From: Lichina pygmaea
Lineage: Eukaryota > Ascomycota > Lichinomycetes > Lichinales > Lichinaceae
Direction of reading: 5' to 3'
DNA: 64,000 nucleotides
Assembly (NCBI GenBank): GCA_963422465.1
Contig: OY730171.1
Location: 496,001-560,000 of the forward strand
Shown: positions 39,526 through 61,436 of the stretch, piece by piece
How the letters are laid out: the number at the start of each line of letters is the position of its first letter
Numbering within the stretch: position 1 is the stretch's first letter
Program-made: the position numbers and the translations under genes
The notes under the pieces: generated by a model
Seen by the model: the letters and a program-made list of their open reading frames with translations, nothing else
Databases searched by the model: none
What the model was told of the DNA's origin: nothing

Positions 39526-40889
39526 ATGGCGACCGAAGTCTCGAACACGCGGCTCTACTTGGGCAACCTCGCTCGGAATGGTATGAGGGATCTCCAGGCT
39601 TCGCCCGTCGTCCTTTTCGGTCGCTCGGAAGGAGGGCCCGTATCGGCCGGCGGCGGGCGCGAAGCCTGCCGCGACCCTCCGCCGAGTCTTGACTGATTTC
39701 GTCGTCCGGCACAGTCACAAAGGCCGACATCGAGAGTCATTTCGCGTCCCACGGCACCGGCCACATCGTCGAGATCAAGCTCATGAACGGCTTCGGCTTC
39801 ATCGAGTACGAGGATGAGGCCGATGCCAAGGACGTCGTTCCAGGTTCGTCCGCTGCCGGCCTCGCACGCGCCTCCACCTGGGATGTCGAATGCTGACGTT
39901 CGGTCGCGGCGCCCCTAGCCTTTCGTGCGTCACCTCGTCGCTGTCCGCTGACGGTTCCGTCGAGAGGCGCTCTGGCCGGCTAACCCGTCCGATCCTGCAC
40001 CCGCAGACGGTTCCGAGCTCTTGGGGGAACGATTGACCGTCCAGTTCGCCCGTGGTTCCCGTCCGAAAGACCCCTACGCCGGCCCCGAACGCACGATGCC
40101 CCGCCCGAGGCGAAGCGCGTACCGCATGCAGATATCTGGCCTTCCGGTCGAGACGAGCTGGCAGGTTTGACTCTCCATCCCACTTGTTCTGGATCCTCGG
40201 ACCCTCTATCGTTTGTGGTTCTCCCCGCGCCCTGCTCGAGGAGGAGGACGGCGGTGACGGAGGACCCACGGCCACGACCGAGCTCTCCCCTCCTCTTCCC
40301 AGCCGTGTCGGGGTCGATTCCTTTCGGCGTCTTGGGACCTCGTCCTGGGGTCCCGGAAGGTCTCGACCCCGGATGCCCTCCCGTTCCACTTCGCCCTGCC
40401 CGTCGCTGGCCCTTTTGGCGCCATGTCTTGCCCTGTGTGCGCTCTTGTCCGGGTTGGCCGGTCTTCTGGCCATGGAACGCGTCCCTGCCCAGTCTCTCTC
40501 CGACGCCTCTTCCGCTGTTGGTCTAGTCCGGTCCGGTCTGGTCCTCCTCCCGTCTACGTGAGGCTACAAGGAGAATCTGGCCTGCTGCTTTCCTTGGAGC
40601 TGGCCACGCCGTGCCCTGAGATGCGGCGCTGGACGATGTTGGATTGGCCTCCGTCCGCTTGGTTCCTTTTTCCCTGCTGGCGCTTGGGACTTGCTCGCCC
40701 TTTGGATCCGTGCCCCGTGTCTCTCTGGCGCTCCCCGGACTTGGACTTACGCCGATGTTCCGTCACTAGGATCTCAAGGACTTTGCTCGTCAATCCGGTC
40801 TCGACGTGGTCTATTCCGAAACCGGCCGCGAACGCGACGGTCGTGGGTACGTCTTGCCCGTCTCGTCGAGGGACGTTTGTGCTCGGCCA

Positions 40890-40924
<35 letters not shown>

Positions 40925-41573
40925 GTCTTGGGCCGCCTAACTCCATCGGGCGCGCGCGCTGACGGCTGCCGCGTCGCTCTCCACTTAGCTTCGTCGAGTA
41001 CGAGACCAGCGCCGATCTGCGGTCGGCCGTCGAGAAGCTGGACGGCCGCGAGTTCAAGGGTGCTCGGGTCACGTGCCTCGCCGACGTAAGGAAGACGTCT
41101 CTCCCCTCCGTTCCTGACCGGTCTCGGCGGTCCGGCCGATCCCCTTTCGGGCCCGAGCTGACCGACACGTTCGCGCTCGACCCCAGACCCAAGACGAGCG
41201 GCCGCGCGAGCGGTACCGCTCCCGATCGCCCTACAACCGGCGTTCCTACATGCCGGAGGAGTACGACCACCGCCCTCCTCGGGCCTACAGCCCTCCGCGT
41301 CACGGCTACCGGGACCGCAATACTCCGCCGCGCGGCTACTACGAACGCGAGCGATACCGGTCGCCGCCGCCTCGACGTGATCCGCTGGACGACTATCCGC
41401 CCCGTCGGCCCTACCCGGCCGATCCTTACGAAGGCCGTGACCCGCGCCGCGGCTACGAGGCCGACCCGTACCTCAACGGCCACGCTCGCTCGTACGGACG
41501 GCCGCCGTCGCCGCGCGGACGACCTCGGTCGCCGCGAGGTTACCACGAGTACCAGCGTCGCGCATACTGGTAG
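39526..41573 (+). CDS. srp2: Srp2-like SR splicing factor (RRM, pseudo-RRM, RS tail)
   Basis: Nuclear SR protein that binds exonic enhancers and recruits splicing factors. My model has seven exons: 39526-39580, 39715-39843, 39919-39924 (6 nt), 40007-40164, 40770-40846, 40989-41085, 41187-41573; 302 aa. RRM1 shows RNP2 LYLGNL and RNP1 NGFGFIEYED, then VVPAFHGSELLGERLTVQFARG, in which A-F-H comes from the micro-exon. The second domain has SWQDLKDFAR, the pseudo-RRM signature of SR proteins. The tail is rich in Arg, Tyr, Ser and Pro (YRSRSPYNRR, PPSPRGRPRSPRG). Intron 40165-40769 is 605 nt, far longer than others in the window, as for SR genes that regulate themselves by splicing (known in the family, inferred here). 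Confidence 0.9.
39919..39924 (+). other. 6-nt micro-exon of the SR factor gene
   Basis: CCTTTC lies between acceptor CCCCTAG and donor GTGCGT. With it the protein reads V-V-P-A-F-H-G-S, the family consensus I remember; without it the frame is kept but the three residues A-F-H reduce to a single D. The flanking introns are 75 and 82 nt, each with a CTGAC or CTAAC site. Confidence 0.7.
40894..40923 (+). repeat. T30 homopolymer in an SR-gene intron
   Basis: Thirty T residues lie in intron 40847-40988, about 65 nt before the acceptor at 40988. Unusually long for a GC-rich locus. Confidence 0.9.
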
Positions 41574-42327
41574 AACTTCTTCTCCTTCCACTCTTCTCCT
41601 CTGCTCCGGTCTCTCCTGCATCCTCGATCGGTCCTGTCCCGGTCGCTCGTGCTCCAACCCCAGCTGTGGCCGGGGGGTCTGAGCTAATCGAGCCCGCGCG
41701 TCGGTGCAGACGGTCGAGGGTCTTGGCGCTGCGGCGAGTTGGCGAAGCGACCTTCGCCGGCGTCGCCCGAATCAACGTCGCCGGTCTCGCCCTGTATGTT
41801 CAGATCAGGTCTTGCAACTGCGTACATCCGCATCTCCATCTCCAACATCCGTCTCAATGTCGTCCGGGGGGCGCCTGAGCGGTCCAAAACGGGCCTTCTT
41901 CCTCGTTCGAGTATCACGTCAAAAGCGGTCGAGATCTGTTCCCCTATTACAGTAGCAAGGGACGCACGTCCTGCCTCCGCGTCGTAACCCCCTTCCTTTC
42001 TCCGTCTCTCTTCTCCCCGTCAGCGCGCGCCATCACGAGCGCTCGTCTGCGGAAAGGGGTCGCCGCGGGGCTACGCAGGCACAGTAGAACAACCGTCTAC
42101 CACCGCTCCGGACGTCTACATTCGCTCCGCTCCTCGTCCCGGTGCTACAAGACGAATCGAAAAAGCGTCGTCTATCATACCGCGTCTCTCGTCTCTGCTA
42201 CCACGTCTCGTCGTAGAGGGTCCGTCCCTGATAGGGGGGGGAGAACAAGCAACATCTGCGGAGCAGGGTCGGTGTCTATCCACGCCACTTCTTTCGACGC
42301 AAGACATGGTCAGATGACACCGTCTAT

Positions 42328-42388
42328 CCCCCCCCCCCCCCCCCCCCCCCCGACGCAGCGCCGTACCGTGCATCAGGGGGGGGGGGGA
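42328..42388. repeat. C24 and G13 runs forming a potential hairpin
   Basis: A run of 24 C (42328-42351) is followed after 24 nt by a run of 13 G (42376-42388). The runs can pair as a GC stem or form G-quadruplex / i-motif structures. Confidence 0.85.
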
Positions 42389-43280
42389 ATTGTCTACGAG
42401 TACGCAGGGCAGCGGTCGCTGGAGGGTGTTGCACAACTCCACCATCTCATCACCGCTCTGTGTGGCCAAAACCAAAGGACTCGGAGATGCTCTACCGTCG
42501 ACCCAGCAATGGTCAGTTAGTTTGGATTTCTACTACTGTACCGGTAACTAGAACGGGGGTCGGGAATACCGATACGAAATAGTGTACCCAAGAAGGTCTA
42601 ATACACGTTACTGTAGCTTCCACTCCTAACGTGACCCGGCAATGACTATTTTAGATTTCTAGTAAGTAGAATTGGGGGGGGAATACTGATACGAATACCA
42701 AGACTCAGATTATCTAGTAAGGTCTGTACACGTAAGCTTCTGTTCCTGACGTACGAGTACGTGAGATAGGTACGGTTCGAGTACTCGACGGTAGAGCTGG
42801 CTCGAGGGGTTGCACGGCCTGGGACGATGAGTTTGGTGGAGAAGGTGACGGCTTCGTAGAGTGGTAGCTTCCGGGGGGGAACATCCAGGACGTCCGGAAA
42901 TGAATGGAGGATGGGCAATCTACAGTACATCGTGCGGTGGTGTGTACGGTAAGGCTGAGGAGGGATGCCCAGCTCTGCTGGGGAGTAGCGGGATCGCAGG
43001 GCTAGGTAGGTGATTTAGTCTTCCTGTGTTGATTACTCTGCGGTCTGATCTTTCGAGCAATTTCAACTTCCTGGCTGTGTTTGCTTGTTCCAACACCGAA
43101 CGAGGAGTGGAGATTGGTTCTGATGTGGTCCGATGTGTTCTGATGGTCGACCGTGCCGACCAAGGGCATCAGGTGAGAGGAGGGAACGAGTGAGGGGAAC
43201 AAGAGAGGGGGAAAAGGAGGAGTCGACGAGAGAGAGAGCCTGCAGGGATGGATGTCCAGAATCTACTTCATCGAACATCC

Positions 43281-43327
43281 CAGAATAGCAAAGATCCCAG
43301 AATAGCAAAGATCCCAGAATAGCAAAG
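43281..43327. repeat. Short tandem repeat, about three 17-bp copies
   Basis: CCCAGAATAGCAAAGAT occurs about three times head to tail, the last copy partial. Confidence 0.85.
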
Positions 43328-43475
43328 AAACGTTGAGGAGGGAAGGGAAGCCTGCCTATGCAAGGCACACATCGCCGTCCACACAGATCACGGAATTGGA
43401 TGAGTACATGCAAGATTGCCATGTGCACTTGTTGCGGGGTGGGGTGGTGCGAAAGGGCAGGGGAGAGGAAGGAGA

Positions 43476-43500
43476 GGGGGGGGGGGGGGGGGGGGGGGGG
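43476..43500 (+). repeat. G25 homopolymer
   Basis: Twenty-five consecutive G follow a purine-rich lead (GGGGAGAGGAAGGAGAG). Length in the assembly may be unreliable. Confidence 0.85.
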
Positions 43501-46500
43501 CCGCCCTTGGCATGGGTGCACGAAAACCGGGTTTAGACGTCCAGGGCTGAGATCGGTATCCGTTCAGCATACCAGCGATCATCACGGCCGCTGGACTCCC
43601 CACCACTCTGCGCTTGGCGTTCACAAAAAGTCCCCCGTCGCACCAGCAGTCCGACTTGGTGCCCCCACGGCGCGCTTGGAACAGCACAGCAAAGCACAGC
43701 ACAGCTGACGTTCTGTACGTGCGGTGAAACGGCGCAGGTACTCTTGCCGGATGAATGCTTGCTGCCGCCTCGCCACACCACGACGCACGGTAGGGCTGCG
43801 ATCCGATGACGCTGAGCTTGCCTGCTCAGGACATCGAGCGTGCAAGAGGTGCCGCGTTAGAGCTTGTGTTGCCCGAGGCTCAGCCCTGGGAAGTCGATGC
43901 GCTTGCTCTTGTGAATCCACACCGTCGACGGTCTTCGGGCGGAAAGGAGGGGGATTTCCAAGCGGGCCGACCACGATGGACTGAGCGCACTTTAATTACT
44001 TGTCCGTGAGACGTTCTAGACCGGGTCGTCTCGCTTGGCCAAGTTGGCGGCCAAGACCTCGGTCTTTCCCTGCATCGGCCGAGGACGACGCCTTGACGTG
44101 GACGTGGACGAGCGCGGAATGCCTTGCGGCCTTGGTCCCGGGACAGGAGACGATCTCTCCCCCTCGTTCGTCGACTGGCTTCTTCCGTGCTGACGTCCGG
44201 CAAGGAGCAAGGGTCGAGGTATCCACCAAGCCGGCTAGCGAGCGAGACGACTCGCATGCTGACAGGACAGGGCAGATATGACCAGCCGGTACATACGTAC
44301 GTATGTACCGCATCGTCCGAGATAGACTCGGTAGCCGATTCCAGGACATCGAGACAGGAGCCACGTTCCAGGGAATCTGGGAGAGACGCAGGAGATAAAA
44401 GTCCGAAGATGCTGTGCTACAGCATCGCCAGCGAACAAGCCGAGCAACCTCCGTACCAGCGGAGAGCCAGAGGAGCTCTTCGCGCTCCAGCCGATGCTGA
44501 CGGGCACCTAGCATCTTCTGCTACTGCCGCCACTCCTGCTGGCGATGGTGGTAGCGATGATGAAGATACAGCGCTGTCAAGTATGTCGACGACTAGAACT
44601 GCAGAAGTCTGTCAAAGGGGGCAGTAGTCCGCCGCTGCCCAACCAAGCATGGAACAAGTCATGCAGGGGAACGATTCAAGGCCACCTTTAGCCACTTCCA
44701 TCGTCTGTCCTCGCGAACCTGACGTCTACTCGTAGATGCAGTACGACCAAGTGGTTGGCCTCTAATCCGCACCGAAGTACTCCGTACGTACGTATGTCTC
44801 TCGGATCTTGTGTCGTCTGTAAGGTACCCGTAGCTCTACCGTACGGTCCATGCGGCAGGAGGATATATAGCCGTCGGTGGTTGGTGGCGGAGGAAAAGGA
44901 AAGAATCGACCGGGATCTGGGTCGTGGTGTTACAGTAAGCGGCGAAGCCCAACGATAGGGAAGGGACGTGAAGGGGCCGATGTGGCCAAACACGGCGGCT
45001 CTAGGGTGATGTGAGCCCCCGAGGCTCACTAGACTTAGCGCAGCTGCAATGCCGGAGTTGGGGGCATCACACCCTATTCAGTGAGCCGGAGCACAAGCTA
45101 GCCTACTGTACCGAACGTACTGTACGAGTACGTAGAACAGGCTTCTACAGGACTCAAGGCAGCGGTCGTGCCTCTGCCTACGGTATACGGTATGCTGTAT
45201 TATCGTCGACATGTGTACGGAGGAATTTACGTGCCTGAGATAGGCTTCGCCACGACCGATCATCGCGCTGCTGCGGTGGGCATCCAAGCACTTCCGTTCG
45301 ATGCCGTAGATACAGCACGAGGTACGTATACGTAGAGTGACGAGCTCTGCCGCAGAGACGTAAACTCCCCCCCCGACAGCTCTAAATAAAGGTGGGGCAA
45401 ACGACCTGCTTCGGGCCTTGGCACCGGCTTGGTAATCACAGCTTGTTCCAGAAGTTCTGGAGAAAGGCACTACTCGCAACGCCGGCGGCGGGGCTTATCA
45501 GCGATAAGAGGTGGCGTAGCTAGGCACACCTGGCCCCGATGAGACAGCTATCGCGAGCCTACGAGACGATAGCATGACTTTTGGATCAACGACGCCCGCT
45601 CGAGCTACACCGTCCGAGTACCCGTCCGCCTTCACACCCTCATACATCGATGTCGTCAACGGGTTCGTCTGACGAGACTCGGCGTGGAAGTTCCACGCGC
45701 CTGCAAGTCGCGAATCGGAGGGCTTCCGACTTCGTTCTGATATTGCTTTTGGCCGGGTCTCGTCTCGCAAAGAGCATCGACCGTCGTCGAAGATGCTACC
45801 GTACGGAGTATTCTACTGGAGATACGGCACGGCTTACGGAGCTCGTTGACCGACCTCGACCGCGGACGTCAACCAAAAGTCAAAGCTGAGTGCTCGGCCG
45901 GGACCTCGAGCGTTCGCGCCCACACCGTCGCCAGTTCACTTTTCTTACCCGACGGTGCAGAGAGGACGAGTGTGGAGGCTGGATGATCTCCGACGCGAGA
46001 TGCCGTCTCTCCCCGGTCTCGCGATCCACCAATAGCGCCGCCCTCGAGGCAGTGCACGTTGCGCGTGGTCTGCAGTCAGGTCGGACTTGCCCCCTTTGTT
46101 GTCTTCATCTGTTTCTCGGATGCTGACACCTGCACTCGCTTGGGGTGCCTCCCACCTCCGTACATCGGGTGTATGCATACGCACGAAGTACCGAAGATAC
46201 CTCGTACGTGTCGAGGTTCGCGGGGAACGGCCCGGCTCCGGAGAAGCCACCGCCGTCGGGCCCGAGTCGGTCAGCAGCATCGCGCCGCCGTGTCGTTCTC
46301 GCGATGGTCACTGCTCGAGCCCGACGTGGCGGCCTCCTCGGGCACCGTCCAGACGGTACCCTCTACGAACGGCCATCTCACGGTAGGGCCAGCGTCGTTT
46401 CTGCCAAGGGGCGGCGCTCGCGCTATTTTTGCGACCGATCGACCGTACCTTCGTACGGAGTACCCCGTACGGTATCAGGTCCCGGTCGGCCTCCCCATCA

Positions 46501-47466
46501 TCGCCGTCGCCACACCGGCCTCTCGACAGTCGAAGCCGGTCGGTCATCAGGGGACAAGGTCGTAGGGACGCTAACCGTTCTCTCTCGGGCTGACCGCTTA
46601 CAGTACTTGGTCGAGACATGGGTTTCTATTAATGGGCCGGTGCGCCTCTCACACCTCGGTCGCCCATTGGCCCGGGCTCGATGTCTCGAAGGCTTCCTCG
46701 CCGAGAGCGGGTCGAGCCGAGCACGAATCGGCCAGGACTTTGAAGCTTCGAGGGGGGCGATCACGTCGTGTTGACGGGGCCCTTCAGAGCTGAAAGGCGT
46801 CACCAAGGATCTCCGGCCACGGTTGCATGGGGATTGCATGGGGGACGACCGAAGCGCCGGTCGCACAAACGTGCTTTCGACGACTGCAGCCCGGCACCTT
46901 GGCGCTCGATGGTACGTGCAAACCACATACGTTTTATACCGGTAATGAACGTACGCACGTACAGAAGAATGACCCCTCGGTCGAGGGAAAGGCCGACTCG
47001 ACGAAGCGGCTCTAGCGATCAACTACCGGGCGATGGCGTACTGCCTCCGGTGCTGTGCCTGCTGCATCCCAGGGTGCGGCTGAACGATGACATAGGTATC
47101 AGCACGGCACCTGCTGCGCCAGATCTTATGCGCGGACCAGACCCTTCCGACATCGTGTCACGTCGAGTCGAGATTCGGGCACGCACCTCCATACCGATGC
47201 GCCCCGGCCCAGGGCCCAGGACCACGAGGCCGACCCGCCATCTCCGACCTCGTGCTGCCTTCTGGAGAGCCCTCTTCATCCGCGCCTCCCGCACCTCTTT
47301 CGCAGTCGCACCTCAGGCCTTGGGCGGATGTCGAACGAGAGAGCTGCTCGAGTGAGCTGCCTGGATGACGACTCGCGATAGGGCAATTGCGGGAAGACCA
47401 CGGACGTGTCGACCAAGAGGCCTGCCCGGGTCCCGATCCCCCGCCGTCCACTAGGTCGCATTCTCT

Positions 47467-47468
<2 letters not shown>

Positions 47469-47519
<51 letters not shown>
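47469..47519 (+). repeat. (GTC)17 microsatellite upstream of the DUF3433 gene
   Basis: Seventeen GTC triplets lie 90 bp before the start codon at 47610, probably in the 5' UTR or core promoter. Confidence 0.85.
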
Positions 47520-47609
47520 CATCTCCTCCCTCATCCGCTTCGTCCCCCGGCGGTGCACTCCCGCGTCTTCTTGGACGCAGAGGCGCCATCGCCGTCGCCG
47601 TCGCCGACG

Positions 47610-50600
47610 ATGGCGCTCACGCCCGGCTCGCCGTCGTACGCCCCCGTGGGACGAAACGCGCGGCGACGGCAGTCCAAGGCTCCGTCGATCATGCCCGGTG
47701 AGTGTTGTTGACGCCCGCCACGTCGACGCAGATGCCGTTCACGGCGATCACACCTCCCTCGCGCCCTCTTGTCGCGTCGGTCGTGCGAGAGGACTTTGGG
47801 AAAAGGGATCCGGCTTGCTGACGGACGTTGTTGTCGTCTCGTGGCAGGATGGTTTCGTCAGTCGACCGGGTCGTTCTTTTCCACCGGCCCGCGCTACTAT
47901 CGGCCCGCGGTGCTCTCGACGCCCGTCTTCGTCGTCGTGCTCGCCGTGATAGTGGTCTTCTTCGTCCTCACCGAATACGCCATCAGAGCACTGCCGCCGC
48001 ACAACGCCCCCACCGTCGCGACCGCCGTACCGACAACGGCCGCCAAGGCCCGTCGCGCCGCATCGCCGCTCTCCGACGACACTCCGGCCGCGGCCGGCCC
48101 GACGCCGATGATGCGGCTCGAACGGCGCAATCGCATAACGGCGCCGAGAGACGAGTACCTGCCTCCCTCGATCACCAGCGCTGGACCCGAGACCGTCGCC
48201 GAAGACGAGGACCCGTCTTCCTCCACCAGCACCGGCGCCGATGATCGCCTGCCCTCGTCCGTCCAGACCGTCGCGGAGAGCTCGGCGTCGGGGTCCGCGC
48301 CGACGGCGGACCTTCCGGGACAGTCCGCCGATGAGCATCTGCCGTCCGACATCGTGACCTCGACAGGCGCCACCGACGATGATCTGCCCTCGTCCGTCGA
48401 GACCGCCGCCGAGAGCTCGCGACCGTCGACGGCGGCGTCGGCGCCGCCCCCGGCCGCCGAGGGACCGTCGGTCGACGAGTATCTGTCGTCCGAAACCGTG
48501 ACGCGCCCCACCGATGACTATCTGCCCTCGTCCATCGAGACCCTCGCCGAGAGCTCACGACCATCCAAAACTGTGACGCGCCTCACTGATGATTACCTGG
48601 CCTCGTCCATCGACACTGCCGATGATCATCTATCTTTGTCCATCGAGACTGTCGCGGAGAGCTCGCGACGGTCCGCAACCACGTTCTCTGCGCCCGCCGC
48701 CGACGATTATCTGCCCTCCTTCATTGAGACTGTCGCCGAGAACTCGCGACCGTCCGACACCACGCTCTTGACGCCCGCCACCGATGATTATCTGCCGTCG
48801 TCCGTCAAGACTGTCGACGAGAGCTCACGACCGTCCGAAACCGTGACACGCCCCACCGATGACTATCTGCCCTCGTCCATCGAGACCGTCGCCGAGAGCT
48901 CACGACCGTCCGAACCCGTGACGCGTCACAAAATGTACGTCGATGAGTACCTGCCGTCCAGCATCGTGAGCTCGACAGGTGCCACCGATGATGATCTGCC
49001 CTTGTCCGTTGAGACTGTCACTGAAGACAAGTATCCGCCTTCCTCGCGCATCAGCTCTTCGTCCAGACGCGCCCTCAAAGGCAATTACCTGCCTTCCTCG
49101 GTCGCCACCTTGTCACCCGACGTCGTGGCTGCGTCGGGCACTGTCGATGATTACCTGCCCCCGTCCATCAAGACCGTCGCCGATGGCTCGCGACTGTCCG
49201 ACACCACGCTCTTGACACCCGCCACCGATGATTATCTGCCATCGTCCATCGAGACTGTCGACGAGAGCTCACGACTGACCGAAACTGTGACACGCCCCAC
49301 CGATGATTACCTGCCCTCGGCCATCGAGACCGTTGCTGAGAGCTCACGACCGTCCGCAACCAAGTCCTTGACGCCCGCCACCGATGATTACCTGCCCTCA
49401 TCCATCGAGACTGTTGTGGAGAGCTTGCGACGGCCCGACACCACGCTCTTGGCGCCCGACGCCCCCGCCGACAAGTATCTGCCATCGTCCGTCGAGACTG
49501 TCGCGCAGAGCTCGCGACCGTCCAAGACCGTGGTCTCGACGCGCCCCGCCGATGATTATGTGCGCTCGTCCGTCGAGAGCGCCGCCGAAGATGACTATCT
49601 GCCTTCGACTGTCGAGACCGCCGCCAAAGGCTCACAAGCAGCCAAGAGCGCCGCCGAAGATGACTATCTGCCCTCGTCCGTCGAGACCGCCGCCGAAGGC
49701 TCACGAGCGGTCAAAGCCACGGGCTCTATACGCATCACCGACGATTACCTGCCCTCGGCCATCGAGACCGTCGACGAGAGCTCACGACCGTCCGGAACCG
49801 TGACGCGCCCCACCGATGATTACCTGCCCTCGGCCATCGAGACCGCCGAAGGCTCCCAACCTAGGGACACCACGTCATCGACGCCCGCCCCCGACAGTTA
49901 TCTACCCTCGGCCATCGACACCGCCGCCGAAGGCTCCCAACCTGGGGACATCACGTCATCGACGCCCGCCCCCGACAGTTATCTACCCTCGGCCATCACC
50001 ACGTACTTCACGCGCATGTCCGATGAGTATCTGCCGTCCAACGTCATAACCATGACACGCGCCACCGATGACTATCTGCCCTCGTCCGTCGAGACCGTCT
50101 CTCCGCTCCCTTTGGACTCGGACCGGCCGGGCGCAGCAGCAGATGCCGCCGAGCCCGCATCGTATTTGGCCAGCAGCGTCGACGTGGGTGTGCTGACCGT
50201 GACCATGAGGGAAGGGGCCACAGGGAGAGAATTGTACCTCACTCACTCGGCCACGTCGGAAGACTGGGACCAGACCCTAGCGGTCACGTTCACTTCTGCC
50301 TACGTCGATCCAAGGATCGGGACGATCAAGGCCGGGCCTACGGACGTTTACACGGACGCACCGATGGAATCGTACCTCATTCCCTCGCCCACATCGAAAG
50401 GATGGTACTCGATCGAACCGGCTGCGCCAAGTTCTCTCTACGTCGATCCAGTCGCGACACAAGCCCCGGTGGCACCGGCGCCACCGCCGAGCGACTACAT
50501 CGACCCTACCCCCGTTCGTGGAGCACCACCGGAAGGCAGCTTTGTCGATCCGGACGTCCAAAGGCCGAACGGCAAAGCACCTGCGCCTGGAGCTTCCGAC

Positions 50601-51375
50601 ACGGCCGGCCAGAGCGGAGAGAGCGGAGTGGCTGCGGAGGCCATGCGCGCCCGTCAGAGCTCTTACATGCCTGGTACGATCGTTTGGGTTCCGCTGGCCG
50701 AATCCGACTCGGCCTACGTGCAGCCCACCGTCGGTGCGGAGCCGCCCCCGAGGGATTCTTTGCCGGACCAGGGACGGTATGTACAGCCCGAGAGGCGTTA
50801 TTCGCTGGGCCAGGGACGGTATGTACAGCCCAAAGCGACGCAGCAACCCGCCGTCATCGGGGACATCCAACGTGGACGCCCGACGCCGCCTCCGCCTCCG
50901 CCTCCTCCAGAGGGCTCCGATAGGACTCTGCCCGATCCCGATGGGTGGGAGGCCTACGGGAAAGCGCCGGTGAGATACTACGTCCAGTCTACCGTCGAGG
51001 CGCCGACACCGGTCCTCGGTGCGGTCCGAGGGAACGCGCCCGTCGAGGCCTCGAAGCCTGGAGAGCAGCCGAAACCCGCGCCGGGCGCGAACGCCGGCGA
51101 CGGCTCGAGGTCGGCCGAGGGCTCGGCGTCCGGAGAGGATCCGAGGCCCGGACGAGACTCCGAGCCCGGAGAGAAGCCGAAACCGGGCCAGGAGGTGAAG
51201 CCCGAGGCTGGTTCGAGGCCCGGGGAGGACCCCCCGGTCGTGGTCTACTACAAGCCGCACGAGAACGAATTCCAGCCTTCGCGGGTCTACACCGTCGTCG
51301 CAGGAGGCGGAGCGTCGTCCGCGACGCATTCTCCCCCCCAGGGCTCGGTCGACAAAGGAACGTCCCCCGGTGGCA

Positions 51376-51427
<52 letters not shown>

Positions 51428-54410
51428 GCCGGAAAACGTCGTGGCTGCGGCCGTTGGAGTCGTTACCGGCATCGCCAAGCCCATCGCCAAGGTGTTCGGC
51501 GGTGGATCCGACTCGAACTCGAACTCGGACTCGGGCTCGGACTCGGGCTCGGACTCGGACTCTGGGAGACCAGGTGTCGAACGGAACGGGGCTGGGCCCG
51601 ACGAGGCGGCCGGTGTCTCCATGATCACCCTCTCCGACGCCACGACGCCATTGACGATGTACGTCCCAGGTCAGCTGGCCGTCTTGTCCGCTCCCGGATC
51701 GCTTGTCGTGACGTCCGTCGACGGCAAGCGCGTCGCGACCTCCGTCCCCGGCTCCTTGGTGACGACCTACCTGCCCGGCCACTACACCGTCGCGGCCGCC
51801 TCCGGTCCGATGCTGGTCTCGTCCGTGTCGGGATATCTTCTGACGACCACCGTTCCCCCGTACGCCGTCGTCGGCTCCGTCCCGGGCTCCGTGCTGACGA
51901 CCTTCGTCTCGGGCATGCTCGTCACGACCTCTCTGCCGGGCAGCGTCGTCACGACGTCCCTTCCCGGCTCCGGGGTGCTGACGACGCTGCCGGGCTCCCT
52001 CGTCACGACGATGGCGTCGGGAACGCTGGTGACGACGTCGATTCCAGGCTCGGTCGTCAAGACGACGCTCCCGGGCTCGGAGGTTGTCACGACCGTGCCT
52101 GGTTCGTCGGTCACCACCTTCGTCTCGGGCATGCTCGTCACGACCTCTCTGCCGGGGAGCGTCGTCACGACATCCCTTCCCGGCTCCGAGGTGCTCACGA
52201 CGCTGCCGGGCTCCCTCGTCACGACGATGGTGTCGGGAACGCTGGTGACGACGTCGTTGCCGGGGTCGGTCGTCAAGACGACGCTCCCGGGCTCGGAGGT
52301 CGTCACGACCGTGCCCGGTTCGTTGGTCACCACCTCCGTCTCCGGCACGCTGATCACGACATCGCTCCCCGGCAGGGTCGTCACGACGCGGCTGCCTGGC
52401 TCGGAGGCGGTCACGACCCTCTCCGGCTCTCTGCTCACGACCATGATCTCGGGGAGCCTCGTGACGACCTCGGTCCCCCCCACCGTCGTCACGACCTCGG
52501 TCCCGGCTTCCGACGTCGTCACGACCCTGCCGGGCTCTCTGGTCACGACCTCGATATCCGGCACTCTGGTGACGACGTCCGTGCCGGGACGTCTGACGAC
52601 GAGGCGCTACTCCGGCTCCGTCGTGACCGCGTCGGTGTCCGACTTCCAGGTGACCATGGCGCCAGGCGCCCAGGCCTCCTCGACGGCGCCGAGCCCGGCC
52701 GCCGCGGCCACCGAGACCAGCTTCGGCAGCGGACCTCAGCGGCTGGACAGGCCGCTGATCGAACTCACCCAGGCACGCTACTTCCTGGGCGCCTACTTCC
52801 CCGTCGTCGCCGCCATCCTGCTGCGCATCACCGTCGGCATGATGTACGCCGCCGTCAAGATGATGGAGCCCTTCTACACCCTGAACGGCCCCGCCGGGGC
52901 CGAAGCCAAGAAGTGCCTCGGCGTCTTCTACCTGTCGACCAACCACTCGCTGGATCCGTTCGTCGCCATGTTCCGCGGCCACTGGCTCGTCCTATTCGTC
53001 TCGGTGCTCTACCTCGGCGTCGGCCTCCTGACGCCGTTCGCGTCCGAGTTCCTCACCTTCGACGAGTTCCAGAACTCCAAATTCGTCAGGGGGCCGGAGA
53101 TGCGCGTGAGCGTCGGCGTCGGCCGCGCCATCCAGGGTCTGCTGGCCTTTGCTCTCGTCATGCTCGTCGGCATGTGGCTCCTGCAACGTCGACACAGCAG
53201 CGGCGTCTTTGCCGATCCGAGTAGCATCTGCACCATCGCCTCGCTGCTGCATCACCCGGACGTCATCGACGACTTTCGGCAGATCCCCGCCGAGGCGACG
53301 AGCCGCGAGATGGAGGCCATCTTGGCCGACAGACGGTACTCGCTGGCGTCGTATCCGTGCCACGACGGCCGCGAGCGATACGGTCTGGTGCCTCTGCAGT
53401 CGTCGCCGTCGCCGCCGTTGTCGTCGAGCCGGCCGTTCTCGCTGCGTCGCGGCGCGTACGTGCCTGTGCGCGACCGGGACGACGATCGCGACGCCACGGC
53501 AGCAGCGGCAGCGGCAGAAGAGAAGCCGCGACGCAAGCCGCGCCGGCCGCGAAAGCCCGGTCGGTACATCCTGCTCGCGCGCGTCTCTCGAGACGCCGGC
53601 TTCGTCTTCGTGTGCTCCGCCATGATTGCCATCGTGCAGGTGTACTACCAGCGTCCGGACGAGGAACTGGGGGGCTTTGGCAGGTTCATGTCGTCCGACA
53701 GCTTCGGCCCGCGCTTCCTGTTCGCCCTGGCCGGCATGCTGATCCACTCGCAGTGGAAGCGGGTCGAGAGAGGTACGTCGGTCGGGTTCCACGTCGATGA
53801 TGACATCTCGACGAGAGAAGCGTCTGCGATACTTTGAAGAAGAGGAAGCGTCCGCTAATGCGTCCGGCCAATCGCAGAGTTCTGCGTCAGCGAACCCTTC
53901 CGCGCTCTCGCGCGGGGCAACGCCCCCGCAAAGACCAGCATCGTCGTCGAACGCACGCTGAACCCGGTGACGACGCTGTTCGCGTCGCTGTGGCGACGAC
54001 ACTTCTTCGTGGCGCTCGCGGCCCTGATGGCGCTGCTCGCCGAGGTGCTGATCGTGGCGCTCCCCGGCGTGCCCTTCGACTCGGGCCAGCTGCATCAAGG
54101 CTTGGTCGTGAGCGCCAATCTGAGCACGTCGATCATGAGCGTCATGCTCGTCGCCCTCTTCGTCATGTACCTGCGTCCGAGCGGGTCCAGCCTGCCGCGC
54201 AACCCGGACACGATCGCCTCCCTAGCCACCTACCTCTGCCACTCGTCCCTGCTCGCCGACTTTGCCGACTTTGCCAAGATGGACCGCAAGACGCGCAACG
54301 CCGAGGTCGCGCGCATGCGCCGCACCTACTGCCTGACCAGGACCACGGTCGAGGACGAAGATGGCGCCGTCAGGTACCAGATTGACTACGACTCGGTCGC
54401 CACGCCGTGA
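47610..54410 (+). CDS. Giant DUF3433 multi-pass membrane protein with three repeat regions
   Basis: Function unknown. Exons 47610-47697, 47848-53772 and 53878-54410 give 2181 aa. The start was chosen as the ATG whose short exon splices in frame to WFRQSTGSFF. Residues about 50-75 form a first membrane helix (VFVVVLAVIVVFFVLTEYAI). Residues 130-810 hold about 30 copies of a D-D-Y-L-P-S-S-I-E-T unit, followed by looser Y-[VIL]-x-P units, a poly-Asp run (about 14) and an SD-rich run. Residues 1300-1640 are 37 exact nonapeptides. The C-terminal part matches DUF3433 as I know it (MMYAAVKMMEPFYTLNG, VFYLSTNHSLDPFVAMFRGHW, LLTPFASEF) with six further hydrophobic segments. The core is a known fungal family; the repeat load is unusual. 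Location is inferred to be plasma membrane with the repeats outside. Confidence 0.85.
48149..50190 (+). repeat. About 30 coding repeats of the DDYLPSSIETVAESSRPS type
   Basis: Units of roughly 20-30 residues keep the core [TD]-D-[DE]-Y-L-P-S-[SA]-[IV]-E-T and a variable Ser/Thr/Pro spacer. Neighbouring copies are often nearly identical in DNA, which points to recent tandem duplication. Confidence 0.9.
51384..51425 (+). repeat. (GAC)14 poly-aspartate run
   Basis: In-frame GAC triplets encode about 14 Asp after a Gly-rich segment of the DUF3433 protein. Confidence 0.85.
51660..52680 (+). repeat. 37 nonapeptide repeats with a 216-bp higher-order unit
   Basis: Every unit is nine residues, [PS]-G-[ST]-x-V-T-T-[ST]-x. 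A block of eight units is repeated at a distance of exactly 216 bp (GGCATGCTC at 51912 and 52128). The alternation of PG turns and VTT strands suggests a beta-solenoid or beta-roll; that is inference. Confidence 0.9.
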
Positions 54411-56707: not shown

Positions 56708-59433
56708 TCAATGTCGCCCCTGTGTAGGCTTGGCAGAGCTGCCAGAAACCCTCCTGCTCTTCAGTTCCTCCTCCTCCTCCTCCTCCTCCTCCTCCTTCTC
56801 TTTTTTTCTTTTTCTTCCTTCTTCTGATTTCTCCTGTATTTCTTCTCCTCCTCCGTCTTCTTCTTCGTCCCAGTTAGATACAGTCCACAGTGGGAGCGTC
56901 CACAGTGGGAGCTTTGAATTAATCCCGATGGGGTAATGTAAGCCCTCTTCGACGAACGTGAAGCCCGGTGGGTGTAGGAAGCTTGTCCACTCGCCGAAGA
57001 CATCGTGGGGCGCTCTCCGCCGCTGGGCTGTCTCGTACAGGCTGGCCGACTTGGTAGACCCTTCACCACCCATCCTTTTGGCCCAATCTGCCGTGACAGG
57101 TGCGGTGGTGGGTTTGAACGGTGGTGCCACCGCCCTGCGCTTCGTCTGCTCCCAGTCGACGTTCTCAAAGAAAGGATGGTCGATGAGCTCGCCATACTCG
57201 TGGAGTGCCCCAAGCCTGTGCTTCGGGCTTCGATTGAGAAGTCCCTTGATAAGGTTCTTCCCGTGCGGATTGAGCACATCTTTTGGAGCTCGGATCCCTT
57301 GCGACTTGGTGTTCGTGTACGACGTTACAGTATCTTTGGCGTGCAACGGACCTCGGCCGCACGCCATCTCGAAGGCGATCGCGCCGAGACTCCAAAAGTC
57401 GGCCATACCGAGGTCGGACCTGTCGTCGAGCAGCATCTCCGGGGCTGTGTACTCGCTGACCATGGGATCTCCACTCAGGAAAGTCGCTTGCGGAAAGCCG
57501 AAGTAGCTCAGCACGGCGTGGCCGTGGGCGTCCAGCAGGACCCTTTCCGGTTTGAGGCCGTAGTATCTGATGCCGCTCTGGCGAAGGAATTGCAGCCCAA
57601 GAATGATCTCGGCAAGATAGAACTGGACCCACGAAATCGTAAACCTGCCTTCCCGCCGCAGAAGCCTGACCATGTCGCTACCTATTGGGTAGTGCTGGAA
57701 GAGGTAGATGTGTGATGGCTTTTGGAAGGCGAATGCCAGGCTGGTGATGAACGGGGAGCGCAAGATCTTTGCCTCCTCGAGGATGTTCCTTTCAAAAGCC
57801 TCTTGACCAACATTCGAATTCCCGAAGACGGTGCTCTTGGCAAAGACCTTCATGGCGTAGATGCAGCCCGTGTTCTTCTTCCGCACCGTGTAAGTTTGAC
57901 TGGAAGAGCCTACGGCCGCGGGTCAACATTTCACGGCCCACTGAAGCGTGGTTCTGACAGGAATCACCTCTTTCAACCACCTTCATAATCTCAAAATCTG
58001 CAGGGCCAACGTCCATGTCATCTACCCCCAAGAAATAGATGGTTGCGCGGAGCTCTCCGGAGACCTGATCTTCCTTTGTATCTCGGGCTTCCAACGGGAA
58101 CCAGCCGTTCAGGGAATGGAATTTGCCGCCCGGCTGGAGAATCAGACGAAGGGTGACCTGGCCAAGAAACTCATCCTGATCCACTCCATCCCAAACTGAT
58201 ATCTGAGCTTCTGGTGCCATTCGAAGCACGTCGCTGAGTGATCATTAGCCCCTTTCGCAGCGTGCCTAGATCTCAAACTTACAACATAGCTTTCTCATAA
58301 CAACGTGCGAATGTCGGATAGCCAGCAGCTACTTTCAATGTGAATGTGCTCAGGCCAACAGATACTACGAAAGAAGGTTCACGAGCCCGTAATCCTCTAG
58401 CGTCGTGTACCTTGACCCACAACTTCCCACTCGGCAGCCGTTCAGGTGGCAGGGTTTGACCTTGATGAGCGGACGCTCCCTCAACGTCTGCAGGTTGATG
58501 ATCACTCGGATTAGGATGATCTGAGGATTCAGATTCGGCATGGAAGCTTCGGCCCTCGTCACAGCCTAACGAGCCGGAACTCCAAGGGGCATCTGAGCCG
58601 CCAAAGAGCGGGAGGCTTCCTATCGCGCTCTCATCTATTTCGTGATTAGTGCGATGAGATTTACGACCGTTGTAGGTCTAACCTTTGCTTGTGTACTCGG
58701 CGGAATAGCCCCCATCCGACTCATCATGCGAGTCGAACTGCAGATATCCTGGGTCCTCAGAAAAGCGGTCAGGGAAACAGTAATCCTCGCCATCCGGGTG
58801 GTCCGCCATTAAGCCAGATCCCTGTAATCTCCTGCGCATGGTGGCCCCGGCCGCTGACGGTGGGCCAAAGGGTAACAAGGCGATACTCCCGCAGTAGTCA
58901 GAGGCGTCACCGTAGCCCATGCTCCTGGCGCTCGAACTTCGTGAAGCACGCTCCGCTCCTACCAGAGGCTGCGGCGTAGAGTCTGTCGTCTTGATAGCAA
59001 TTCCCGGGTGAAGCACGCCACTCTTTTTGATGATGGCCTTTGCCCGCTTGCGTACAGGCTGGCTTCTGCAACCTAGAATGATAGTGGGGACGGCATGGGC
59101 CGGATCTCGTCCCAACATCCATATGCCATACGAGAACGTGGGCGAGATGTCTTCTCCTTTGTCCAGCTCTTCACTCCGAGTCTCAAGTAATCTCTTAATT
59201 TCCGGGCATATAGCTTTGGAAGCCTCGCAAGCAGGACCCACAGCCTCCCACATGAAGCCACCGCTGGTAGTTTGTGGATATTTCCACCCAACTGACTTCT
59301 CGGGTTCAGGCCAACATGGCTTTTTCCTCTTCCATCTCATGCATGCCAATGACATTAGTGAAGCAATCCTGTCCGCCGGGCCGCCATGGGACGACCCCTG
59401 CGGGGAGGTTCCAAGTGGCGGTTGAGTGTTCAT
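56708..59433 (-). CDS. Fungal N-terminal unknown domain + C2 + Sch9-like pseudokinase
   Basis: Exons 59433-58683, 58634-58283, 58233-57968 and 57909-56708 give 856 aa; intron 1 (58682-58635) carries a CTAAT branch site and joins what could look like two genes. Residues 1-170 hold a segment (FSYGIWMLGRDP, PTIILGCRSQPVRKRAK) that I recall from lineage-specific Sordariomycete proteins. A C2-like domain (about 320-440: KLWVKVHDARGL, FDV, ISVWDGVDQDEFLGQV) leads directly into an AGC kinase fold most like Sch9. VAIK Lys is kept (YAMK477), and APE and D-F-W-S-L-G are kept. Lost: Gly-rich loop (RGSSSQTYTV), HRD Asp (YYG574), Asn (R579), DFG Asp (Y592FG) and T-loop Thr (PMV). The hydrophobic motif GFTFVEE remains. 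The C-terminus is a poly-Glu stretch. Catalysis is unlikely; a scaffold or Sch9/TOR-decoy role is inference. Confidence 0.82.
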
Positions 59434-60290
59434 CTTGCGAACAATACACACTGCGAGACCAATGCTGTAAGACGTGAATCTAAGAAACCAGACAGACTGA
59501 ACGCCAGGTGTGGCATGTCTTCACGGCCCTAGGTAGATTGAAACCCTGTTGATGGTTGATGTCCATCTTTTCAGGCATCGATAGTGTCTGACTACCTGCT
59601 GAACATGGAAGAGAAACAGCAGATCAGACGGACGGTCGAGGGAAAACGTAGAGTTGTCTCGAAAAGCACTAGACTGGGCATCTGAGCTAACTTTGATCTG
59701 GAAGTCAGCAAACGGAACAAGCTGAACCTGATTGAGGGATCTTGAAAGGGCGGCGATAAAAGAAGACTTTGCTGTGATGCATCTTACAGTGAAAAACGGA
59801 GACTACAGTCGAAGCTCGTTTGCACGACAGAACGGTCGATAAGGGCCAGCTCTCGGCCCAGCCATGATTGCTGTCACTCGTCGCAGGCTGCTGTCTTGTG
59901 TGGAGGCCAGGCTAGGCCAGGCCAGTCTGTGATACTGAGCAGAGTTTCTTTCTTCCACGACCTGCTAAGCTTCCGTACGGCTCGGACACTGAGCTGTCAC
60001 TCTCTTGCTCGCACGGAAGGCTGAAGGGTCGCCCCCGCCTCGCTGACTGCCTCAGCCGGCGGATGGGGCACAACCGTGCATAGTCGCGTAACCCTGCCTT
60101 GTGGCACCACGAGGTTGAACCGGACTGCAGCCTTGTCCGGCAGTGCCCACCAATGCATTAGCAACGTATGGAGCACTCCGTACGGAGTACGTACGTACAT
60201 GTGTGTGTGTGGAGAGGTCTCGGAGTGGAGGCATCGGTCAGATACAGCTCTCCCCTATGAGTCCGCGGCAGATTTTCCTTGGTGTTCACA
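59434..60290. promoter_or_regulatory. Divergent promoter region of the pseudokinase and tail-anchored protein genes
   Basis: About 860 bp between two start codons. A palindromic CTCCGTACGGAGTACGTACGTAC patch (60177-60199) followed by a TG microsatellite (60200-60211) lies about 80-110 bp before the plus-strand gene. Confidence 0.45.
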
Positions 60291-61436
60291 ATGTCCGCTG
60301 CGATTAAATTAGCAAATTGCCCTGATCCCCTGGATTGCAAGCTATCGATCATTCCCTTGACAGAGGACGTGAGGGGTGCCATCACCAAAAGTCTGTGGGG
60401 CGAGACGTCCGACGGTCAATTCTACACCAGCGCGGTGAAGGACCTAGACACGTATTTCTCTTACTGGGGAGACGAGTGCCGGGTCGCGCGGACGACATCA
60501 AGGTGTCACAGGGACGTATTGAACGTTGTAGAGCGCCTGAAACAGCCGGACGGGACTCGGGATTCGATCAAGGAGGGCATCGATCAGGACGACAGCGATG
60601 CCATCTCGAACTACGAAGAGCTTGTTGATGCATCCGTCGCCCTGGCCGTTCGCTTGTGGTTGATGGTTTACATTGATAGCGTAGGCCTGTCGCAGACGGT
60701 AGGCCACACGCAAGCCCGCTGGGAGCAGGGAACCTTCCAAGACTTTGTCGCCGGCGTCTTCTCGCCCGACCATGGCCTTCATTCGAACGTCAAGCTCGAG
60801 AGACTCTTCAACGCCCGTAATCTGGAGAGGATAGCAGGCGTCCGAGTGACCTGGACGAGCAACCTGGCCGATCATCTCTCGATGAGGGATGACGATACCA
60901 GGGTCCTCGTCTTCCATCATGTCACCTTTCTGGAATGCCATCAGAGCTCGAGCTGGTACGCACAAGCGCACACATACCCCCCCGTACGGCCAGTGGAAGG
61001 TCGCTGACACGGTGGATCCAGTTCTGCCTTCCCCGTTGACTTTCTTGACGAGACGCTCCGCTCCATATCTCTGCTCCTGCCACCGGGAGACGCCAAGCTG
61101 GAGAAGTGGTTCAAAGTCAAGCAGAAGAAAGTCCATCTGGACCCCAAGGTCTTGTCATGCCCGTATCTAAAGCAGGCGGATCGTCAGATTGAAAACTTTC
61201 GGTACTGGCGAGACCGCCTAGTAGTCCTCAAACAGACCTTTGACGAGTCTGAGCCAAAGACCGTCAGGGCTTGGTGGAGTGACGACAGGAAGCGCGTGCA
61301 GTGGTACACCTTCTGGGTGGCGGCATTGGTTTTAGCCTTGACCGTGTTCTTTGGCCTGATTCAGTCTACAACGGCCCTGATACAGGCATGGGCATCGGTG
61401 ACCAGCTTGAACGAGGACCGTAGACACGGAGGCTAA
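60291..61436 (+). CDS. Tail-anchored protein of a Sordariomycete-restricted unknown family
   Basis: Exons 60291-60955 and 61022-61436 give 359 aa. Most of the protein is soluble and helical. Two blocks, ARNLERIAGVRVTWTSNLAD with MRDDDTRVLVFHH, and RQIENFRYWRDRLVVLKQTFDE, recur in many filamentous fungal hypothetical proteins as I remember them. Close to the C-terminus WWSDDRKRVQWYTFWVAALV (about 310-330) leads into one hydrophobic helix (ALVLALTVFFGLIQ) followed by about 25 residues, so it looks tail-anchored. No catalytic motif is recognised. It is divergent from the pseudokinase gene with a shared 0.86-kb promoter. Function unknown. Confidence 0.8.

What the first reader, a model, noticed from the sequence alone, without database searches (positions are those of the whole stretch)
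56708..59433. Sch9-derived pseudokinase fused to a lineage-specific fungal domain
The C2-kinase part aligns by eye with Sch9 along its whole length, yet all main catalytic residues are replaced: HRD Asp to Gly574, loop Asn to Arg579, DFG Asp to Tyr592, activation-loop Thr lost and the Gly-rich loop degraded. The fold-keeping residues (Lys477, APE, DFW, hydrophobic-motif core) remain and the frame is intact through four exons, so it is kept as a protein, not decaying. It also carries an N-terminal domain unknown to Sch9. It could bind Sch9/TORC1 partners or lipids as a decoy or scaffold.
Basis: partly seen in the sequence, partly recalled or inferred. Interest (0 to 1): 0.78.

Follow-up and report, generated by a model that had tools for sequence, protein, structure and literature searches.

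The report
Dead Sch9 kinase copy, new N-terminus
A fungal gene made from a spare copy of the nutrient-signalling kinase Sch9 has lost the residues needed for catalysis, kept those needed for folding and gained an unrelated front end, so it probably works by binding other proteins rather than by phosphorylating them.

Summary
A four-exon gene (59433-56708, minus strand) encodes 856 aa: an N-terminal region without Pfam match or second copy in the genome, a C2-like domain, and an AGC kinase domain that groups with this genome's own Sch9 (100/99). Two introns lie at the same codon and phase as in Sch9, so it is a DNA-level duplicate, not a retrocopy.

Catalytic residues are gone: HRD Asp and Arg, loop Asn, DFG Asp, two of three Gly-loop glycines, activation-loop TFCGT. 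Near-invariant catalytic columns are kept no more often than variable ones (4 of 13 versus 86 of 226); fold-keeping ones are kept in 37 of 41. Synonymous sites are saturated, nonsynonymous ones are not. This fits a fold held by selection after catalysis was released; recent onset of decay is not excluded.

The mechanism (partner, decoy or scaffold in the Sch9/TORC1 branch) is inferred. The exon 1 junction rests on splice signals only. No other fungal genome could be searched, so spread, age and orthologue dN/dS are unknown. Pseudokinases are common; one derived from Sch9 did not turn up in the searches made.

The parts
58683..59433 (-). Exon 1: start codon and N-terminal region (residues 1-250)
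   Evidence: Open frame, best of six frames by codon score; no Pfam match; single copy in the genome
58984..59292 (-). Most ordered-looking part of the N-terminal region (about residues 48-150); fold unknown
   Evidence: Choice by eye; low-confidence helix/strand pattern only (pLDDT 34.7); no second copy at E up to 10
58635..58682 (-). Intron 1 (48 bases), junction between N-terminal region and Sch9-derived part
   Evidence: GT...AG with ACTAAT branch-like site; holds an in-frame TAG; length a multiple of three; no transcript seen
58283..58634 (-). Exon 2: linker and first half of C2-like domain
   Evidence: Alignment to host Sch9; codon score barely best of six frames
58026..58428 (-). C2-like domain (about residues 320-437, interrupted by intron 2)
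   Evidence: PF00168 E 0.0055, 17.3 bits, under the cut-off of 22; collinear with Sch9 C2
58234..58282 (-). Intron 2 (49 bases), same codon and phase as the C2 intron of Sch9
   Evidence: Phe of FDV split after its second base in both genes
57968..58233 (-). Exon 3: second half of C2-like domain and start of kinase domain
   Evidence: its frame scores 0.066 and is second to a frame of the other strand (0.104)
57910..57967 (-). Intron 3 (58 bases), same codon and phase as the Gly-loop intron of Sch9
   Evidence: Gly codon split after its first base in both genes
56708..57909 (-). Exon 4: pseudokinase domain from the Gly-rich loop on, hydrophobic motif, tail and stop
   Evidence: Pkinase E 1.2e-31 for the whole protein; best codon score of six frames for the kinase part
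57557..57559 (-). HRD Asp replaced: Gly574 (HRD Arg is Tyr573 just before)
   Evidence: Alignment with 10 intact AGC kinases, coordinate
57542..57544 (-). Catalytic-loop Asn replaced: Arg579
57503..57505 (-). DFG Asp replaced: Tyr592
57460..57463 (-). Place of the activation-loop deletion (five residues opposite NTFCG), about Met606/Val607
   Evidence: exact place depends on the alignment
56957..56959 (-). Hydrophobic-motif Thr774 kept (PPGFTF)
56711..56941 (-). C-terminal tail, acidic, with GAG-repeat run
   Evidence: Tandem repeats 56766-56800 and 56883-56912; another frame scores better here

Best explanation
The gene is a duplicate of the host's Sch9 that lost kinase catalysis, kept the kinase fold and carries a different N-terminal region in place of Sch9's own. 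Shown: origin from the Sch9 lineage, copying as DNA, loss of residues for ATP-Mg binding and phosphate transfer, and selective keeping of fold residues. Inferred: it works by binding. Features by which yeast Sch9 is controlled are gone here: the N-terminal region (PI(3,5)P2 binding), most of the extended C2 loop (SNF1 site), the activation-loop TFCGT. The C2 core, the C-lobe and the hydrophobic-motif Thr (the TORC1 site in yeast) remain. The most likely mode is that it competes with Sch9 for, or scaffolds, Sch9 partners (TORC1, substrates, regulators), at a place set by the new N-terminal region. My odds for the steps: catalytically dead 0.92; kept as a working protein 0.75; one fused transcript 0.75; acts on the Sch9/TORC1 branch 0.4.
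For: Tree pairs it with Sch9 at 100/99 and Ypk1 next at 97/95. Two introns at identical codon and phase. Only other DNA match in the genome is Sch9, 65% over about 450 bases. Catalytic near-invariant columns kept 4 of 13, others 37 of 41, Fisher p 6.8e-5; with a broader catalytic list 7 of 16 and 34 of 38, p 8e-4. Against Sch9, variable columns are identical in 86 of 226, fold invariants in 37 of 41 (p 2e-10), catalytic ones in 4 of 13 (no different from variable ones, p 0.77). pS 0.596 equals random pairing (0.603); pN 0.358 is far from it (0.735). Neutral simulation to the same identity: 6.4 stops on average, 1 of 1000 runs without any. Regulatory sites of yeast Sch9: PMC10455444, passages.
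Against: No transcript, no orthologue and no structure: single-sequence AlphaFold2 models are unusable. C2 is under the Pfam cut-off. Outside the kinase exon the coding signal is weak: exon 2 barely best of six, exon 3 second of six, tail better in another frame. Lys477, Glu496 and Lys576 are kept, so some nucleotide binding cannot be ruled out. Nothing shown here ties it physically to TORC1 or Sch9.
Confidence: 0.55

Rival explanations
1. A duplicate that lost selection lately: a pseudogene at an early stage whose frame is still open.
For: Very long branch, 1.25 against 0.034 for Sch9; relative-rate counts 54 to 9 with Ypk1 as outgroup; weak coding signal in exons 2, 3 and the tail; GAG-repeat tail.
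Against: Fold invariants kept 37 of 41 against 86 of 226 variable columns; nonsynonymous sites unsaturated while synonymous sites are saturated; all four exons open. These speak for constraint over most of its life, not for the present.
Confidence: 0.2
2. Two genes or two transcripts: exon 1 ends at the TAG just after 58682 and the C2-kinase part is made separately or starts from an unseen exon.
For: If intron 1 is not spliced, TAG ends the first frame at once. No transcript seen. N-terminal region is unrelated to Sch9.
Against: Exon 2 has no ATG in its frame before the C2 domain; intron 1 has GT, a branch-like ACTAAT and AG; both exons join in frame.
Confidence: 0.2
3. The copy is older, or came from another fungus, and is not a duplicate made in the host's own line.
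For: GC3 of the kinase part 0.713 against 0.929 for the C2-kinase part of Sch9; the N-terminal region has no second copy in the genome.
Against: Sch9's own tip after the split is only 0.034, which favours a split late in Sch9's history; intron positions match the host's Sch9, but no other fungal Sch9 could be compared.
Confidence: 0.2
4. An atypical but active kinase whose catalytic residues have moved.
For: Lys477, Glu496, Lys576 and one Gly of the Gly-rich loop kept; such cases are known among pseudoenzymes (PMC10211241, abstract and passages).
Against: HRD Asp, loop Asn and DFG Asp all lost together, and the activation loop deleted; catalytic columns drift like variable ones.
Confidence: 0.06

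Closest known systems
Sch9 (fungal AGC kinase, TORC1 effector)
   Same: Order C2 then AGC kinase then hydrophobic motif; two intron positions and phases as in the host's Sch9; nearest in tree; Thr of the hydrophobic motif
   Different: No HRD Asp, loop Asn, DFG Asp or TFCGT; first half of C2 56 aa shorter; other N-terminus; no STPLSP turn-motif stretch as in the host's Sch9
Ypk1 (AGC kinase with C2 domain, TORC2 effector)
   Same: Second nearest in the tree, 97/95; layout with C2 (PMC10455444, passage)
   Different: Intact catalytic residues in the host's copy; 36% identity to the new protein against 55% to Sch9
Pseudokinases that act by binding (FAM20A, STRAD, IRAK3, HER3, TRIB1; PMC10211241, passages)
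   Same: Kinase fold without a full catalytic set
   Different: Other kinase groups; partner and mechanism known there, inferred here
RPS6KC1 (S6K-related human protein with lipid-binding and MIT domains; recalled, search listing only)
   Same: S6K-related kinase-like domain joined to another N-terminal module (recalled)
   Different: Animal protein; different N-terminal domains; not compared by sequence here
Ffk kinases of Aspergillus nidulans (PMC3591445, passages)
   Same: Fungal kinases present in some species only; authors ask whether they are pseudokinases
   Different: Not described there as Sch9-derived; not compared by sequence here

Membership tests
Pseudokinase | Kinase domain by sequence | tested here: met
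   PF00069 E 1.2e-31, 110.6 bits against cut-off 31.7
Pseudokinase | At least one of the catalytic motifs (ATP-binding Lys, HRD, DFG) lost | tested here: met
   HRD Asp to Gly574, DFG Asp to Tyr592; Lys477 kept; definition from PMC10211241, passage
Pseudokinase | No phosphotransfer activity | not testable with these tools
   Needs a biochemical assay
Sch9 (working TORC1-effector kinase) | Descent from Sch9 | tested here: met
   Tree 100/99 with the host's Sch9; two shared intron positions
Sch9 (working TORC1-effector kinase) | C2 domain before the kinase | tested here: inconclusive
   17.3 bits against Pfam cut-off 22, E 0.0055; collinear with the C2 of the host's Sch9
Sch9 (working TORC1-effector kinase) | Intact catalytic residues | tested here: not met
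   4 of 13 near-invariant catalytic columns kept
Sch9 (working TORC1-effector kinase) | Activation loop TFCGT | tested here: not met
   Five-residue gap opposite NTFCG; TFCGT as in PMC10455444, table passage
Sch9 (working TORC1-effector kinase) | Hydrophobic motif with Thr (TORC1 site) | tested here: inconclusive
   PPGFTF against FKGFTF: Thr kept, first Phe lost
Sch9 (working TORC1-effector kinase) | Sch9-type N-terminal region (PI(3,5)P2 binding in yeast) | tested here: not met
   No credible alignment before the C2 domain (run without low-complexity masking, so weak matches there mean little); lipid binding itself not testable

The most novel reading that the evidence does not exclude
A gene fusion gave a fungus a dedicated non-catalytic regulator of its TORC1-Sch9 branch: a dead Sch9 that TORC1 can still engage through the hydrophobic-motif Thr, that cannot be switched through the activation loop or the SNF1 loop because both are deleted or cut short, and that is moved to a new site by an N-terminal domain of unknown fold.
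Probability: 0.25. Interest if true: 0.72.

Novelty: new variant of a known kind. Interest (0 to 1): 0.5.

Why it matters
Sch9 is a main TORC1 effector for growth and stress control in yeast. A natural dead version with the fold kept would separate Sch9's binding roles from its kinase activity without artificial mutants, and could be a built-in modulator of nutrient signalling in this fungus. It also shows within one genome how catalysis and fold can be released separately after a duplication.

Tried and rejected
AlphaFold2 on single sequences gave no usable model: mean pLDDT 34.7 for exon 1, 37.4 for the kinase exon. No fold search was run on them.

Scans of viral contigs with the kinase exon and with exon 1 found no homologue. 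The bacterial genome, phage, plasmid and E. coli collections were not searched, since I did not expect a fungal gene there.

Repeat-induced point mutation as the cause of the losses: not supported. TA/AT is 0.59 in the gene and 0.64 in the window; (CA+TG)/(AC+GT) is 1.29 and 1.06; neither points to it by the usual reading (recalled). Asp to Gly at 574 and Asp to Tyr at 592 are not C-to-T type changes.

Assembly error: rejected. 55% of the aligned kinase residues differ from Sch9, and the two genes lie on different contigs.

Host as Drechmeria coniospora, considered for its genome size of 32.5 Mb: not supported. That genome is in three inferred chromosomes of 9.8-12.5 Mb (PMC4792172, passages); here seven contigs of 3.2-5.8 Mb were seen.

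Probes for the N-terminal domain typed from recall: each hit this gene alone. I wrote them after reading the gene, so the 53% and 43% identities are no independent evidence; only the absence of a second hit is used.

Full report
Gene model. The minus-strand gene runs 59433-56708. Three introns of 48, 49 and 58 bases join four exons into one frame of 856 aa. Of the five acceptors tried for intron 3 (27, 58, 68, 90, 93 bases), only the 58-base one restores the kinase frame. Intron 1 is a multiple of three and starts with an in-frame TAG, so exons 1 and 2 are in one frame apart from that stop. Exon 2 has no ATG in frame before the C2 domain. A fused transcript is the simplest model, but it rests on sequence signals alone.

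What the C-terminal part is. Pfam finds Pkinase at E 1.2e-31, and the best-matching solved structures listed are S6K1, Akt, RSK and PKC kinases. Within the genome the kinase exon's best match other than itself is one gene on contig C1, E 1.5e-72 and 43%, also the only other DNA match, 65% over about 450 bases. I read that gene as Sch9 by its layout: 1068 aa, long N-terminus, C2 (PF00168, 34 bits, over the cut-off), kinase with TFCGT, hydrophobic motif FKGFTF. A tree of the new protein, nine host AGC kinases and human S6K1 pairs it with Sch9 at 100/99, with Ypk1 next at 97/95; the other forks are weaker (2 of 8 inner branches starred) and the root is a midpoint. The branch to the new protein is 1.25, to Sch9 0.034. 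Relative-rate counts agree: 54 to 9 with Ypk1, 52 to 19 with S6K1, 45 to 19 with the Psk1-like kinase.

How it was copied. Sch9 has two introns in its C2-kinase part. One splits the Phe codon of FDV after the second base, the other a Gly codon of the Gly-rich loop after the first base. The new gene has introns at both places with the same phase. So it was copied as DNA and not from a spliced message. The N-terminal exon and its intron have no counterpart that I could find in Sch9.

Loss of catalysis. 54 columns are invariant, or have one exception, among ten intact AGC kinases; the new protein keeps 41. I marked 13 of them as touching ATP, Mg, the phosphate or the activation loop (PKA numbering, recalled). 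Four of these are kept: Gly457, Lys477, Glu496, Lys576. Of the other 41, 37 are kept (Fisher p 6.8e-5; with a broader list 7 of 16 and 34 of 38, p 8e-4). The residues that I place in the regulatory spine from recalled PKA numbering (Leu500, Leu514, Tyr572, Phe593, Asp627) are kept. The 11 AGC-type kinases that I recognised among the loci fetched all show the HRD Asp and the DFG Asp as read. That survey covers fetched loci, not the whole kinome of the host.

Selection. Against Sch9, variable columns are identical in 86 of 226, catalytic invariants in 4 of 13 (no different, p 0.77), fold invariants in 37 of 41 (p 2e-10). Five intact kinases set against Sch9 keep both classes: catalytic 9 of 9, 13 of 13, 13 of 13, 12 of 13 and 12 of 13; fold 40, 40, 41, 39 and 34 of 41 (Ypk1, S6K1, PKA, Rim15, PDK1). 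These rows helped to define the columns, so they are no independent control. Synonymous differences are at the level of random pairing (0.596 and 0.603) while nonsynonymous ones are far from it (0.358 and 0.735); differences by codon position are 110, 90 and 141 in 276 codons. Part of this constraint lies on the Sch9 side, but Sch9 has changed little since the split, so most of the path is the new gene's. A neutral simulation to the same identity left 6.4 stops on average, with 1 of 1000 runs free of them. Together this says that the fold was held and catalysis was not, for most of the gene's life. It cannot tell whether selection still acts.

Results that point the other way. C2 is under the Pfam cut-off, and its first half is 56 aa shorter than in Sch9. 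By codon score exon 2 is barely the best of six frames, exon 3 is second to a frame of the other strand (0.066 and 0.104), and the tail scores better in another frame; exon 1 is best of six but below zero. GC3 is 0.713 in the kinase part, 0.493 in exons 2-3 and 0.592 in exon 1, against 0.929 in the C2-kinase part of Sch9. The protein ends in a GAG-repeat tail. All this fits weak constraint outside the kinase domain, and leaves room for the pseudogene rival.

The N-terminal region. Residues 1-250 have no Pfam match (residues 48-256 again) and no second copy in the genome (residues 48-149 at E up to 10). The frame is open where none of 20000 first-order Markov sequences was. I recall uncharacterised domains of this look in other fungi but could not test it; probes typed from recall are not evidence. 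It stands where yeast Sch9 has the region that binds PI(3,5)P2 and brings it to the vacuole (PMC10455444, passages).

Mechanism. By the same passages, yeast Sch9 is controlled through the activation loop TFCGT, the hydrophobic-motif Thr737 (TORC1), Ser288 in the extended C2 loop (SNF1) and the N-terminal region. The new protein lacks the first, has the third cut short, has the fourth replaced, and keeps the Thr of the second. Pseudokinases mostly act without catalysis, as allosteric partners, scaffolds, switches or competitors (PMC10211241, passages). I therefore take a competing or scaffolding role in the Sch9/TORC1 branch as the most likely mechanism, at about 0.4, with binding of something else through the N-terminal region as the main alternative. 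No step of this was tested.

Comparison with print. Searches for Sch9 with pseudokinase (10 papers), for pseudokinase, fungi, AGC and kinome (14), for Sch9, paralog and Hypocreales (1), for AGC pseudokinase (0) and for at least three of Sch9, gene duplication, filamentous fungi and kinase-dead (11) showed no Sch9-derived pseudokinase in titles and starts of abstracts; the texts were not read through, and only open-licence papers are held. In the passages seen, the kinome papers of Aspergillus nidulans and Fusarium graminearum name one Sch9 each. Pseudokinases as such are found in about 98% of eukaryotic proteomes (PMC10211241, passage). So the kind is known; this origin and this chimeric form make it a new variant, as far as these searches reach.

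Noticed in passing
window 4342-5118 (minus-strand ORF 3531-5330): An ABC-transporter-like gene (read by eye) carries about six copies of a 108-base tandem repeat, coding for repeats of about 36 aa, near its C-terminus.
   Followed up: no
window 31347-31682 (minus-strand ORF 31328-32350): 54-base and 18-base tandem repeats code for an acidic GEVDADGEV-type repeat region.
   Followed up: no
window 47712-53834: A 2041-codon open frame with tandem arrays of 81 bases (48619-49997, in several blocks) and 108/216 bases (51900-52588).
   Followed up: no
window 40001-48000: TA/AT index 0.92 in both 4-kb blocks, higher than elsewhere in the window (0.45-0.74), while GC reaches 0.57-0.65.
   Followed up: no
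window 56766-56800 and 56883-56912: A trinucleotide run and a 15-base repeat make up much of the pseudokinase's C-terminal tail; the tail may vary between strains (the variation is a guess).
   Followed up: no
L040 1869-3547 (N-terminus of the host's Sch9): Long runs of Asp and of Ala in the Sch9 N-terminus, and a very high GC3 (0.929 in its C2-kinase part).
   Followed up: no
window 58428-58284 and L040: Right after the first C2 strand the pseudokinase reads HDARGL where the host's Sch9 reads SQARGL; yeast Sch9 has a possible calcium-binding Asp in that loop (PMC10455444, passage), so the dead copy may keep an acid that the live one lost. Not aligned with yeast Sch9.
   Followed up: no
window 60261-61433: A plus-strand gene in two open frames beside the pseudokinase, with a hydrophobic stretch near its end; GC3 about 0.70, no family search made.
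   Followed up: no
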